Source: Xanthomonas fragariae (GTDB lineage: Bacteria > Pseudomonadota > Gammaproteobacteria > Xanthomonadales > Xanthomonadaceae). From it: a stretch of 64,000 bases of DNA. Position numbers and translations under genes: made by a program. Below the pieces are notes generated by a model that searched no databases, had not been told where the DNA came from, and saw nothing but the letters and a program-made list of their open reading frames with translations. The stretch lies in the NCBI RefSeq assembly GCF_017603965.1, contig NZ_CP071955.1:3410001-3474000 (forward strand), in the 5' to 3' direction. Position 1 is the stretch's first letter. Each line of letters opens with the position of its first letter. This document shows positions 49,162-58,572 of the stretch, one piece after another.

Positions 49162-49302
49162 TTACTGTGACGGGGCGCGCGGCTTGGCCTGTCGATACTG
49201 GCGCTTGTCGCCTACACGCTTTCCATTCGGGTCGTCGTTCGAGCAGATACGCCCGTCGCAAACGACCGAATCGGAGGCATAAAACGCCTGCACGATGGGC
49301 AC
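49162..49302 (-). pseudogene. C-terminal part of the split coiled-coil/TM gene
   Basis: The 46 codons read VPIVQAFYASDSVVCDGRIC and end GDKRQYRQAKPRAPSQ. They match the C-terminus of the intact paralogue at 24107-24694. They begin exactly at the outer edge of the composite transposon; the N-terminal part is at 58140-58572. Joining the two with one GCAC copy gives an unbroken 189-codon frame. Confidence 0.88.
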
Positions 49303-49341
49303 TGAACCGCCCCGGGAAGTTGAGAGGCCGTTTGGTTTGAG

Positions 49342-50226
49342 TCACGCCGCTTTGACGTAACCGGCTTGTTGTCGATAGTAAGCCTCTTCGGCTTCCGCTG
49401 GCGGGATGTTTCCGATCGACCCCAGCAATCGCTTGTGGTTGTACCAGTCCACCCAATCCAGCGTGGCCAGTTCCACATCCTGGCGGTTGCGCCACGCGCG
49501 CCGGTGGATCACCTCGGCCTTGTACAACCCGTTGATCGTCTCGGCCAACGCGTTGTCGTAGCTGTCGCCCACGCTGCCCACCGACGGCTCGATCCCGGCG
49601 TCGGCCAGCCGCTCGGTGTAGCGGATCGACACGTACTGCACGCCGCGGTCGGAGTGGTGGATCAGGCCGCCTTCGGTGGGCCGCCGCGCATGCAACGCTT
49701 GCTCCAGTGCGTCCAGCACCAAATCCGTCTGCGCGGTCGGCGAGACCTTCCAGCCAACGATGCGCCGCGCATACACGTCGATCACGAAAGCCACGTACAC
49801 GAACCCGGCCCAGGTCGAAACATACGTGAAGTCGCTGACCCACAGTCGGTTCGGCGACGGCGCATGGAACTGTCGGTTCACCTTGTCCAGCGGGCACGGC
49901 CGCTTGTCGCTGATCGTGGTCTTGACCACCTTCCCGCGCACCACGCCGCGCAGGCCAAGTGCGCCCATCAGCCGCTCCACCGTGCAGCGGGCCACTTGAT
50001 AGCCCTCGCGCTTGAGCTGCCGCCAGACCTTGCGCACGCCGTACACCTGTCGGTTCTGCTCCCATACCCGCCGGATCTGCGGGCGCAGCGCCTGGTCCTT
50101 CCACCAGCGGTTCGGGCGCAAGTTCGCGTCCGCTTCCCGCTGCGCGTGGCGGTAATACGTCGACGGGGCAACCTGCAGCACCTTGCAGATTGGCTCGACC
50201 CCGTGAACATCGCAATGTTCGGTCAC
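49342..50226 (-). CDS. IS3-family transposase OrfB (left copy)
   Basis: The 294-residue integrase-like protein begins with GTG (MTEHCDVHGVEPICKVLQVA). It has the HTH_21 region, then the rve integrase core with D (VSDFTYVS), D (HSDRGVQYVS) and E (NALAETINGLYK), and a C-terminal YNHKRLLGSIGNIPPAE segment. It differs from the right copy at several positions, for example ISDKRP here and VGDKRP there. Confidence 0.93.
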   Translation of the reverse strand: MTEHCDVHGVEPICKVLQVAPSTYYRHAQREADANLRPNRWWKDQALRPQIRRVWEQNRQVYGVRKVWRQLKREGYQVARCTVERLMGALGLRGVVRGKVVKTTISDKRPCPLDKVNRQFHAPSPNRLWVSDFTYVSTWAGFVYVAFVIDVYARRIVGWKVSPTAQTDLVLDALEQALHARRPTEGGLIHHSDRGVQYVSIRYTERLADAGIEPSVGSVGDSYDNALAETINGLYKAEVIHRRAWRNRQDVELATLDWVDWYNHKRLLGSIGNIPPAEAEEAYYRQQAGYVKAA

Positions 50227-50234
50227 GAACGTGG

Positions 50235-50555
50235 TCAGGGCTTGAAGCGGCGGTCGAGCTCGGCCTGGGCAAAATACGCGCTGGCCTTGCGCAGGATCTC
50301 GTTGTCTTGCCTCAGCTCGCGCACTTCGCGTTCCAGCGCTTTCATCCGCGTCCGCTCGTCCGTCGTCAGCCCCTGACGCTTGCCGGCATCACGCTCGGCC
50401 TGACGCACCCAGTTGCACAGCGTCTGCGCCGAACAGCCAATCTTCCCGGCAATCGATTCGATCGCCGCCCACTGCGAGCCGTACTCGCCCTGATGCTCCC
50501 GCACCAGCCGAACCGCGCGCTCTCGCACTTCCGGTGAATATTTCGTCTTGCTCAT
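50235..50555 (-). CDS. IS3-family OrfA (left copy)
   Basis: The 106-residue DNA-binding protein has an HTH (IESIAGKIGCSAQTLCNWVR) and a leucine-zipper-like end (LEREVRELRQDNEILRKAS). In IS3 elements it binds the ends, and a frameshift fuses it to OrfB to give the active transposase. Confidence 0.92.
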   Translation of the reverse strand: MSKTKYSPEVRERAVRLVREHQGEYGSQWAAIESIAGKIGCSAQTLCNWVRQAERDAGKRQGLTTDERTRMKALEREVRELRQDNEILRKASAYFAQAELDRRFKP

Positions 50556-50624
50556 CGCCCCATCTTCTCAAGAGTTGGAGCCTCCCGAAATCCCGGGGCG
50601 GTTCACTAGCCACCAAGGAGACCA

Positions 50625-50750
50625 ATGATGCACAAGAGCAAGTTCACCGAGAGCCAGATTGTCGCCACGCTGAAGCAGGTTGAAGGCGGCCGGCAGGTCA
50701 AAGATGTGTGCAGTGAGCTGGCCATTTCCGATGCGACGTGTCGCTGGGTA
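50625..50750 (+). pseudogene. orfA fragment of another IS3-family element
   Basis: MHKSKFTESQIVATLKQVEG followed by GRQVKDVCSELAISDAT is the OrfA start of an IS407-like element. Homology stops after about 40 codons and the rest is missing. It lies just inside the left IS3 copy. The remaining 50751-50957 shows no gene. Confidence 0.7.
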
Positions 50751-56839: not shown

Positions 56840-56886
56840 ACCGCCCCGGGATTTCGGGAGGCTCCAACTCTTGAGAAGATGGAGCC

Positions 56887-57207
56887 ATGAGCAAGACGAA
56901 ATATTCACCGGAAGTGCGAGAGCGGGCGGTTCGTCTGGTGCGGGAGCATCAGGGCGAGTACGGCTCGCAGTGGGCGGCGATCGAGTCGATTGCCGGGAAG
57001 ATCGGCTGTTCGGCGCAGACGCTGTGCAACTGGGTGCGTCAGGCCGAGCGTGATGCCGGCAAGCGTCAGGGGCTGACGACGGACGAGCGGACGCGGATGA
57101 AAGCGCTGGAACGCGAAGTGCGCGAGCTGAGGCAAGCCAACGAGATCCTGCGCAAGGCCAGCGCGTATTTTGCCCAGGCCGAGCTCGACCGCCGCTTCAA
57201 GCCCTGA
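56887..57207 (+). CDS. IS3-family OrfA (right copy)
   Basis: The 106-residue protein is nearly identical to the left copy, with one visible difference in the zipper region (RQANEI here, RQDNEI there). It has HTH and coiled-coil segments that bind IS ends and pair with OrfB. Confidence 0.92.
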   Translation: MSKTKYSPEVRERAVRLVREHQGEYGSQWAAIESIAGKIGCSAQTLCNWVRQAERDAGKRQGLTTDERTRMKALEREVRELRQANEILRKASAYFAQAELDRRFKP

Positions 57208-57215
57208 CCACGTTC

Positions 57216-58100
57216 GTGACCGAACATTGCGATGTTCACGGGGTCGAGCCAATCTGCAAGGTGCTGCAGGTTGCCCCGTCGACGTATTACCGCCACGCGC
57301 AGCGGGAAGTGGACGCGAACTTGCGCCCGAAGCGCTGGTGGAAGGACCAGGCGCTGCGCCCGCAGATCCGGCGGGTATGGGAGCAGAACCGACAGGTGTA
57401 CGGGGTGCGCAAGGTCTGGCTGCAGCTCAAGCGCGAGGGCTATGCGGTGGCCCGCTGCACGGTGGAGCGACTGATGGGCGCACTTGGCCTGCGCGGCGTG
57501 GTGCGGGGTAAGGTGGTGAAGACCACGGTCGGCGACAAGCGGCCGTGCCCGCTGGACAAGGTGAACCGGCAGTTCCATGCGCCGTCGCCAAACCGACTGT
57601 GGGTCAGCGACTTCACCTACGTCTCGACCTGGGCCGGGTTCGTGTACGTGGCTTTGGTGATCGACGTGTACGCACGGCGGATTGTGGGCTGGAAGGTGTC
57701 GCAGACGGCGCACACGGACTTCGTGCTGGACGCACTGGAGCAAGCGTTGCATGCGCGGCGGCCCACCGAAGGCGGCCTGATCCACCACTCCGACCGCGGC
57801 GTGCAGTACGTGTCGATCCGCTACACCGCGCGGCTGGCCGACGCCGGGATCGAGCCGTCGGTGGGCAGCGTGGGCGATAGCTACGACAACGCGCTGGCCG
57901 AGACGATCAACGGGTTGTACAAGGCTGAGGTGATCCACTGGCGCTCATGGCGCAATCGCCGGGACGTCGAACTGGCCACCCTGGATTGGGTGGACTGGTA
58001 CAACCACAAGCGATTGCTGGGGTCGATCGGGAACATTCCGCCAGCGGAAGCCGAAGAGGCTTACTATCGACAACAGGCCGGTTACGTCAAAGCGGCGTGA
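57216..58100 (+). CDS. IS3-family transposase OrfB (right copy)
   Basis: The 294-residue protein starts with GTG, with the integrase core DDE residues in VSDFTYVS, HSDRGVQYVS and NALAETINGLYK. It differs from the left copy at about a dozen residues, for example AVARCT for QVARCT and SQTAHTDFV for SPTAQTDLV. Confidence 0.93.
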   Translation: MTEHCDVHGVEPICKVLQVAPSTYYRHAQREVDANLRPKRWWKDQALRPQIRRVWEQNRQVYGVRKVWLQLKREGYAVARCTVERLMGALGLRGVVRGKVVKTTVGDKRPCPLDKVNRQFHAPSPNRLWVSDFTYVSTWAGFVYVALVIDVYARRIVGWKVSQTAHTDFVLDALEQALHARRPTEGGLIHHSDRGVQYVSIRYTARLADAGIEPSVGSVGDSYDNALAETINGLYKAEVIHWRSWRNRRDVELATLDWVDWYNHKRLLGSIGNIPPAEAEEAYYRQQAGYVKAA

Positions 58101-58139
58101 CTCAAACCAAACGGCCTCCCAACTTCCCGGGGCGGTTCA

Positions 58140-58572
58140 GCACGGCATTTTCATAGCGTTGCAGTTCTTCTTGCGTGGATACTAGCTCGCGCCGGTAATA
58201 CCCCAGCACCGCCCAGCCAACGAGAAGCACCAGCAGTAGAATCGCGCCTGCGGCACCGAACCACATCCATACCGTCTTGTTCGCCTTTTGCAGTTGCGCA
58301 GACGTGGCCGATACGTCGCGGTCGTACTGCGCCGCGACGGGAGCCACCGCGTTCCTGGCTTCCTTGGCGATCTGGGAACTGGCATCGCCGACAATGCCAT
58401 CAACCCGGCGATGTACCTGTGCGACTTCGCTTTGTAGCGACTGCATCCGCTGATCGAAAGCGGCTTGCATGCGCGCTTCGCGCTGCTCGAATTTTGCCAT
58501 CAGCGCGGATTGCAGCTTGAGCGTGTTCTGCAACGACGACAAAAGTTCCGACAGTTGGTTCTCGCTAGACAT
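58140..58572 (-). pseudogene. N-terminal part of the split coiled-coil/TM gene
   Basis: From ATG 58572 (MSSENQLSELLSSLQNTLKL) the frame gives a coiled coil, a TM helix (GAILLLVLLVGWAVLGYYRR) and a linker ending LQRYENAV, where the composite transposon begins. It is a close relative of the intact protein at 24107-24694. The other part of the gene is at 49162-49302. The gene lies 24 bp after the toxin-like pseudogene. Confidence 0.88.

What the first reader, a model, noticed from the sequence alone, without database searches (positions are those of the whole stretch)
49299..58143. Composite transposon that moved a whole RiPP cluster and split a gene cleanly
Seen: inverted 1303-bp IS3 copies, GCAC directly outside both, and two halves of one gene outside. 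Removing 49303-58139 and one GCAC restores a continuous 189-codon frame that matches the intact paralogue at 24107-24694. Inside is lower-GC DNA with a peptide-modifying ligase, precursor, exporter pair and exported protein. Inference: the two IS copies moved the 8.8-kb block as a unit. RiPP clusters mobilised by simple IS3 composites are, to my knowledge, not well described.
Basis: partly seen in the sequence, partly recalled or inferred. Interest (0 to 1): 0.95.

Follow-up and report, generated by a model that had tools for sequence, protein, structure and literature searches.

The report
Composite transposon carrying a peptide cluster
In a strawberry-pathogen Xanthomonas, an 8.8-kb block with a predicted modified-peptide gene cluster sits between two inverted copies of one insertion sequence, at a site that is uninterrupted in a sister genome, so it most likely jumped in as one unit; in this genome the peptide gene itself is cut short by a stop codon.

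Summary
Two inverted 1,303-bp IS3-family copies (49303-50605, 56837-58139; 53 differences) enclose 6,231 bp of low-GC DNA, with GCAC directly outside both and unrelated tetramers (CTAG, GAAC) inside. The decisive new result is a natural empty site: in sister genome G019 the two window flanks meet with a single GCAC, in synteny on both sides; G019 showed no full copy of this IS, only fragments. Both outer ends are the same IS end (IRR), which one ordinary IS insertion plus recombination between IS copies cannot give, so transposition as a unit is the best reading.

The cargo is a graspetide-type cluster: ATP-grasp ligase, GG-leader precursor, DUF6624 protein, HlyD and C39 ABC exporter. The precursor has an in-frame stop in its leader here; intact relatives exist. 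The split gene looks like a plasmid-backbone relic. No second copy of the whole unit was found. RiPP clusters on putative composite transposons are already reported for nisin. A well-documented new member of a known kind.

The parts
49299..49302 (.). left copy of the 4-bp target duplication GCAC
   Evidence: a single GCAC at the aligned empty site of G019
49303..50605 (-). left IS3-family element (1,303 bp; OrfA 106 aa, OrfB 294 aa in the -1 frame, both open); its right end (IRR) faces outward
   Evidence: family assignment rests on the right copy's OrfB and 96% identity
50606..50739 (+). 134-bp remnant of a different IS3-family element, next to which the left IS sits
   Evidence: 89% match at G000:C1:282445-282578; 94% match under an annotated IS3 family transposase in X. 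hortorum plasmids
50958..51590 (-). DUF6624 protein, predicted exported (my reading of its N-terminus)
   Evidence: PF20329, E 6.2e-15; translation
51587..52735 (-). graspetide-type ATP-grasp ligase
   Evidence: TIGR04187 E 7.9e-33, MvdC E 3.2e-27, both below curated cut-offs; profile best match CdnC 7mgv, then AMdnB 7m4s; no Pfam family at E <= 0.001
52765..52935 (-). GG-leader precursor frame, interrupted by an in-frame stop after residue 22
   Evidence: intact relatives P0009-P0016
53091..53276 (.). about 186-bp MITE-like insertion between the two divergent operons
   Evidence: absent from S. rhizophila L016 (alignment break at 53090/53277); 95% copy in G282
53442..54686 (+). HlyD-type adaptor of the exporter
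   Evidence: PF13437 E 6.4e-14
54683..56839 (+). C39-peptidase ABC exporter; its stop codon is the first three bases of the right IS
   Evidence: PF03412 E 1.6e-34, PF00664, PF00005; C-terminus compared with L016
56837..58139 (+). right IS3-family element (1,303 bp; OrfA and OrfB open); IRR faces outward
58140..58143 (.). right copy of the target duplication GCAC
58140..58572 (-). N-terminal part of the split plasmid-backbone-type gene
   Evidence: 91% to G019:C1:3661657-3662089; paralogue 24107-24694
49162..49302 (-). C-terminal part of the split gene
   Evidence: 91.7% to the contiguous G019 sequence

Best explanation
The 8,837-bp segment 49303-58139, bounded by two inverted IS3-family copies and by GCAC on both sides, sits at a site that is uninterrupted with one GCAC in sister genome G019, so it most likely entered there in one step as a composite transposon whose two outward right ends (IRR/IRR) were probably joined to the target by IS3 transposase. 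Shown: anatomy, duplication, mismatched inner flanks, empty site, open transposase frames in both copies. Inferred: that the IS transposase did it, and that the two copies first landed independently beside the cluster in a donor, one at the end of the exporter gene and one by an older IS remnant, leaving CTAG and GAAC as orphan halves of their own duplications. The cargo is predicted to make, cross-link and export a small graspetide-like peptide: the ligase would close ester or amide rings in the core, and the C39 exporter would cut the leader after GG and export the core. In this genome the precursor frame is interrupted, so the cargo is probably silent here. The same gene set occurs on or beside other vehicles in Xanthomonas, Stenotrophomonas and Xylella, so the IS composite is likely one of several carriers of a repeatedly moved cassette.
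For: Inverted 1,303-bp copies and GCAC/GCAC outside, CTAG and GAAC inside. Empty site: window 49159-49302 aligns to L074 11518-11661 and 58140-58738 to L074 11658-12257; the two overlap by exactly 4 bp, GCAC. Synteny is 94-96% on the left (38130-49044) and 88% on the right (59812-64000). G019 has no full copy of this IS: at E <= 1e-10 three partial matches, 40 of 100 candidates scored. Both outer ends carry the IRR sequence and both inner ends the IRL sequence. The IS makes 3- or 4-bp duplications: 10 of the 29 other full copies, 6 with 3 bp and 4 with 4 bp. Cargo GC is 0.523 against 0.622. Cargo occurs without this IS: S. rhizophila L016 at 87-90% nt, with no match in its genome at E <= 1e-20, 40 of 101 candidates scored. 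It also occurs in G228, identified as X. hyacinthi by exact match to P0005, and as a 98% fragment in G282. Family matches.
Against: The two IS copies differ at 53 of 1,303 positions, so they are not recent copies of one another. No second instance of the whole unit was found. The ligase was matched at E <= 1e-40 in 3 of 297 family genomes, one of them this genome and one (G282) only in part; cargo DNA elsewhere in its own genome appears only as short pieces. IS recombination seems common in this genome: 19 of the 29 other full copies have no matching flanks. Of 34 copy pairs closer than 40 kb, one other (29 kb apart) also shares an outer tetramer; of all 465 pairs 5 do, against about 2 expected at 1 in 256. 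GCAC is also the duplication of one single copy elsewhere (L041). G019 is not free of relatives of the IS: it holds a 189-bp piece of the right end at 95% identity, at another place.
Confidence: 0.87

Rival explanations
1. Stepwise origin: one IS landed at GCAC and duplicated it, and foreign DNA carrying the cargo and a second IS was later recombined in through IS homology.
For: 31 full copies at 93-100% identity in the genome, and 19 of the 29 outside the element have no matching flanks, so IS recombination is probably frequent here.
Against: A single insertion leaves IRL on one flank and IRR on the other, and crossovers between IS copies keep that. Both flanks here touch IRR. The copies are inverted, not direct as circle integration would leave them. 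No full copy of this IS was found in G019.
Confidence: 0.05
2. The composite transposed into this locus in a different Xanthomonas strain, and the filled allele was then imported here by homologous recombination of the flanks.
For: The left and right IS variants have no near-identical copy among the 29 others compared (nearest 40 and 51 differences).
Against: No other genome with the filled site is known here: 6 of 35 genus genomes hold a relative of the right-flank gene, and outside the window's genome none of the 35 has a ligase closer than 29% over most of its length or 44% over 88 residues, so none of those can hold this cargo. Only one genome per species is held.
Confidence: 0.06
3. Two independent IS insertions in opposite orientation hit the same GCAC or two GCAC sites, and the block between them is native DNA.
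For: GCAC is also used by another single copy (L041).
Against: The block is absent from the syntenic site of G019, where the flanks are contiguous; inner flanks CTAG and GAAC do not match the outer ones.
Confidence: 0.02

Closest known systems
Composite transposons (two IS copies around passenger genes)
   Same: Two IS copies of one family in inverted orientation, one target duplication around the whole, orphan inner flanks, empty site in a relative.
   Different: Passenger is a predicted graspetide cluster instead of resistance or catabolic genes; outer ends are IRR/IRR; mobility inferred from one instance.
IS-flanked nisin-type clusters (PMC12506125, passages seen) and nisin conjugative transposons Tn5276/Tn5278 (named there)
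   Same: RiPP cluster carried by a mobile element, including putative composites found by IS flanks.
   Different: Those composites are bioinformatic calls of 10-130 kb for nisin-like clusters; here the duplication and a natural empty site are shown, in Xanthomonas, with an ATP-grasp cluster.
Iron-uptake composite transposon of Brevibacterium (PMC6579920, passages seen)
   Same: Operon in an IS composite in one genus, same operon without the IS in another.
   Different: ISL3-family ends whose transposases share 65% aa identity; iron uptake cargo.
Graspetide loci of Xanthomonas, ATP-grasp branch 3, precursor clusters 70 and 75 (PMC8939145, section 6 parts 1-2 of 3 and passages seen)
   Same: ATP-grasp ligase with a predicted precursor and often a double-glycine peptidase gene; the paper infers horizontal exchange for other groups.
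   Different: The stem 'transpos' does not occur in its main text.

Membership tests
composite transposon | two copies of one IS family flank the passenger DNA | tested here: met
composite transposon | one target duplication around the whole and none around each IS | tested here: met
   GCAC/GCAC outside; CTAG and GAAC inside
composite transposon | uninterrupted site with one copy of the target in a relative | tested here: met
   G019, L074 11500-12260
composite transposon | supporting, not defining: the same unit found at a second site with another duplication | tested here: inconclusive
   none seen: own genome, 35 genus genomes, 297 family genomes drawn from a larger group, plasmids; one genome per species only, and records very near the window's genome may be left out
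composite transposon | transposition demonstrated | not testable with these tools
   needs a laboratory assay
IS3 family | OrfA and OrfB with IS3-type rve catalytic domain, OrfB in the -1 frame | tested here: met
   right copy's OrfB: NF033516 314.9 bits against cut-off 160, PF00665; frame offset of both copies
IS3 family | short target duplications (3-4 bp) | tested here: met
   10 of 29 other copies, 3 or 4 bp; 19 of 29 show none
graspetide cluster | ATP-grasp ligase of the MvdC/MvdD/CdnC kind | tested here: met
   profile matches CdnC 7mgv E 2.7e-19 and AMdnB 7m4s E 3.2e-18; NCBIfam hits are below curated cut-offs, so it is a divergent member
graspetide cluster | linked small precursor with conserved leader and Thr/Ser plus acidic residues in the core | tested here: met
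   9 aligned relatives (L016 and P0009-P0016; P0009 repeats L016): GG and much of the leader invariant, and two Glu and one Thr invariant in the core; interrupted by a stop in this genome
graspetide cluster | ester or amide cross-links in the product | not testable with these tools
   needs mass spectrometry

The most novel reading that the evidence does not exclude
A graspetide cassette (precursor, ligase, DUF6624, with or without its exporter) is a repeatedly mobilised unit of the Xanthomonadaceae that changes carriers: an IS3 IRR/IRR composite transposon in the X. fragariae lineage, a tRNA-Ser island in G282, a MobA/MobL neighbourhood in S. rhizophila, and a conjugative plasmid in Xylella taiwanensis. 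The inner cargo is traded almost unchanged (98%) between two genome groups that the genome collection keeps in separate genera, as resistance genes are.
Probability: 0.4. Interest if true: 0.55.

Novelty: new member of a known kind. Interest (0 to 1): 0.42.

Why it matters
It is a base-exact case, with a natural empty site, of an IS-bounded unit bringing a predicted modified-peptide cluster into a plant pathogen's chromosome. It may explain one of the extra RiPP-like clusters that a published comparison reports in strains YL19 and SHQP01 but not in YM2 (PMC10773614, passages seen); that link is inferred. It also shows a likely fate of such a cargo: the precursor is already interrupted in this genome while the ligase and exporter frames remain open. 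The IRR/IRR arrangement is a testable prediction about which ends an IS3 transposase can pair.

Tried and rejected
Stepwise IS insertion plus recombination was rejected because both outer ends are IRR. Native inner DNA was rejected by the empty site. Origin of the flanking copies from the genome's recent IS burst was rejected: 20 copies are identical to each other, but the left copy differs from them by 40 and the right by 51 bases. A 13-base match to the IS end at the cargo boundary in G282 was judged chance (E 0.29). I first took genus g7 for Stenotrophomonas; one search showed that G228 is X. hyacinthi (exact match to P0005), so g7 holds a Xanthomonas species. Plasmid searches with the 10.1-kb region and the inner DNA found no whole unit; a precursor DNA search of plasmids found nothing. 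The orientation-dependent IS distances printed are wrong for many copies (orientation was misread); replace them. A first check of G019 scored only 11 of its 68 candidates; the repeat scored 40 of 100 and found three partial relatives, one a 189-bp end piece at 95%, so I no longer say that G019 lacks the IS altogether. Paper searches: in the listings, titles and abstract beginnings, and in the passages opened, I saw no graspetide cluster on an IS composite; the library holds only open-licence PMC papers and the listings were capped. A lantibiotic composite that I recall (lacticin 481, Tn5721) could not be checked: one search found no paper.
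Full report
Where it is. The window is G000:C1:3410001-3474000 of a 4.11-Mb genome in two contigs, the second 20,156 bp long. The first 20,000 bases of that contig match NZ_CP082179.1 of Xanthomonas fragariae SHQP01, source strawberry crown rot, at 100% identity. A published table gives 4.09-Mb chromosomes and one plasmid for YL19 and SHQP01 (PMC10773614, passages), so the window very likely belongs to that lineage.

Observation. Two inverted copies of an IS3-family element, 49303-50605 and 56837-58139, are 1,303 bp each and differ at 53 positions. 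GCAC stands directly outside both; CTAG and GAAC stand inside. Both copies have open OrfA (106 aa) and OrfB (294 aa), with OrfB in the -1 frame. Inner GC is 0.523, the rest of the window outside the element 0.622.

Empty site. They overlap by four bases, GCAC. Synteny continues on the left (38130-49044 in three blocks, 94-96%; 49045-49158 is not aligned) and on the right (59812-64000, 88%). At E <= 1e-10, with 40 of 100 candidates scored, G019 shows no full copy of the IS but three partial relatives: 77% over 442 bases, 70% over 462, and a 189-bp right-end piece at 95%, all at other places. The G019 copy of the target gene itself has one in-frame stop.

Why one unit. Both outer ends show the IRR sequence and both inner ends the IRL sequence. 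A single insertion puts IRL on one flank and IRR on the other, and crossovers between IS copies cannot change that. The simple routes from one IS plus recombination are therefore excluded; this is an argument from the shown ends, not an experiment. Controls: the genome holds 31 copies at 93-100% identity over the full length. Of the 29 outside the element, 10 have matching flanks of 3 bp (6) or 4 bp (4) and 19 have none. Of all 465 copy pairs 5 share outer tetramers, where about 2 are expected at 1 in 256; of the 34 pairs closer than 40 kb 2 do. The other close pair includes a copy with its own 3-bp duplication.

History of the IS copies. Twenty copies are identical to each other. The left copy is 40 and the right copy 51 differences away from them, no other copy is nearer to either, and they are 53 from each other. 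The element was therefore not assembled from the recent burst as it now stands. In other genomes of the genus, 5 of 34 have a match at E <= 1e-200, 74-95% identical, 11 candidates scored per genome. The left copy abuts a 134-bp remnant of another IS3-family element. The right copy lies in the end of the exporter gene and supplies its stop codon.

Cargo. The genes are: a DUF6624 protein; an ATP-grasp ligase whose profile matches CdnC and AMdnB in the PDB and whose NCBIfam hits lie below curated cut-offs; a GG-leader precursor frame; and an HlyD adaptor with a C39-peptidase ABC exporter. Nine aligned relatives of the precursor share GG, much of the leader, and two Glu and one Thr in the core. 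In the window the frame stops after residue 22. A database protein that otherwise has the same sequence is intact (P0011, on a 4,122,720-base contig, no source named). The cluster was therefore probably whole when it arrived, and this copy is probably silent now. A sequencing error is not excluded.

Cargo elsewhere. S. rhizophila L016 holds the whole set at 87-90% nt identity, beside a MobA/MobL relaxase gene (PF03389) and an H-NS gene (PF00816); no match to this IS was found in its genome at E <= 1e-20, 40 of 101 candidates scored. X. hyacinthi (G228, identified by exact match to P0005) holds DUF6624, ligase and part of the precursor region at 86%, but no exporter match nearby. G282, in the same genus as G228 by the collection's labels, holds a 98%-identical fragment near a tRNA-Ser gene. 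There the ligase is split by an IS1595-type element. The frame that follows the fragment has a DUF6538 domain; I read it as the start of an integrase, which is recalled and not tested. Five Xylella taiwanensis plasmids hold a 52%-identical ligase. The one inspected is typed conjugative, carries an annotated DUF6624 gene, and has a small gene 45% identical to precursor P0016. At E <= 1e-40 the ligase was found in 3 of 297 genomes of the family: this genome, G228, and in part G282. In the genus, 12 of 35 genomes have some ATP-grasp match at E <= 0.001, but all outside this genome are distant, 24-44%. No other genome examined was seen to have the cargo between two copies of this IS.

Target. The split gene and its paralogue at 24107-24694 belong to a plasmid-backbone type: window 23509-27731 is 96.6% identical to plasmid contig positions 11243-15467, and the split gene itself is 72% identical to 11977-12233 of that contig. 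The insertion thus hit what looks like a plasmid relic. Pfam, NCBIfam and PHROGs give the split gene no family above a curated cut-off.

Known or new. Composite transposons are a known kind. RiPP clusters on putative IS composites are reported for nisin (PMC12506125, passages), and a Lactobacillus paper calls a four-IS bacteriocin region a composite transposon (PMC6053492, passages). A graspetide survey seen in part (PMC8939145) does not contain the word stem transpos. YL19 and SHQP01 are reported to have four more secondary-metabolite clusters than YM2, two of them RiPP-like, without a mechanism in the passages I saw (PMC10773614). I therefore file this as a new member of a known kind, with unusually direct evidence of insertion as a unit, and with a bolder reading of a vehicle-changing graspetide cassette.

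Noticed in passing
L077 (G000:C1:3062000-3080000), about 7687-12272: A second, apparently resident C39-exporter and ATP-grasp locus is broken up by two dominant-subfamily copies of the same IS and by an IS30-like transposase gene (my reading).
   Followed up: partly
window 23509-27731: This chromosomal stretch is 96.6% identical to plasmid contig C2 11243-15467, so a plasmid segment appears to be integrated.
   Followed up: no
window 58748-59716: A transposase gene of IS30 type (PF13936; IS30 annotation of a 94% plasmid match) beside the target is absent from the syntenic place in G019 (alignment gap 58738/59812).
   Followed up: no
window 53091-53276: A MITE-like insertion of about 186 bp lies between the precursor and exporter operons; absent in S. 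rhizophila L016, with a 95% copy in G282.
   Followed up: no
L041 (G000:C1:2290060-2291362): A single IS copy elsewhere has the same duplication GCAC; it has 11 differences from the dominant sequence.
   Followed up: no
20 identical IS copies in G000:C1: The dominant subfamily has a right end that mirrors the left end much better (GGGATTTCGGGAGGC at both) than the composite's copies do, perhaps linked to its burst.
   Followed up: no
L074 about 11658-12090: The G019 copy of the split gene has an in-frame stop, so the target was probably not functional there.
   Followed up: yes
G019:C1:2416400-2416588: A 189-bp piece of the right end of this IS, 95% identical, lies in the sister genome with no full copy found there.
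   Followed up: no
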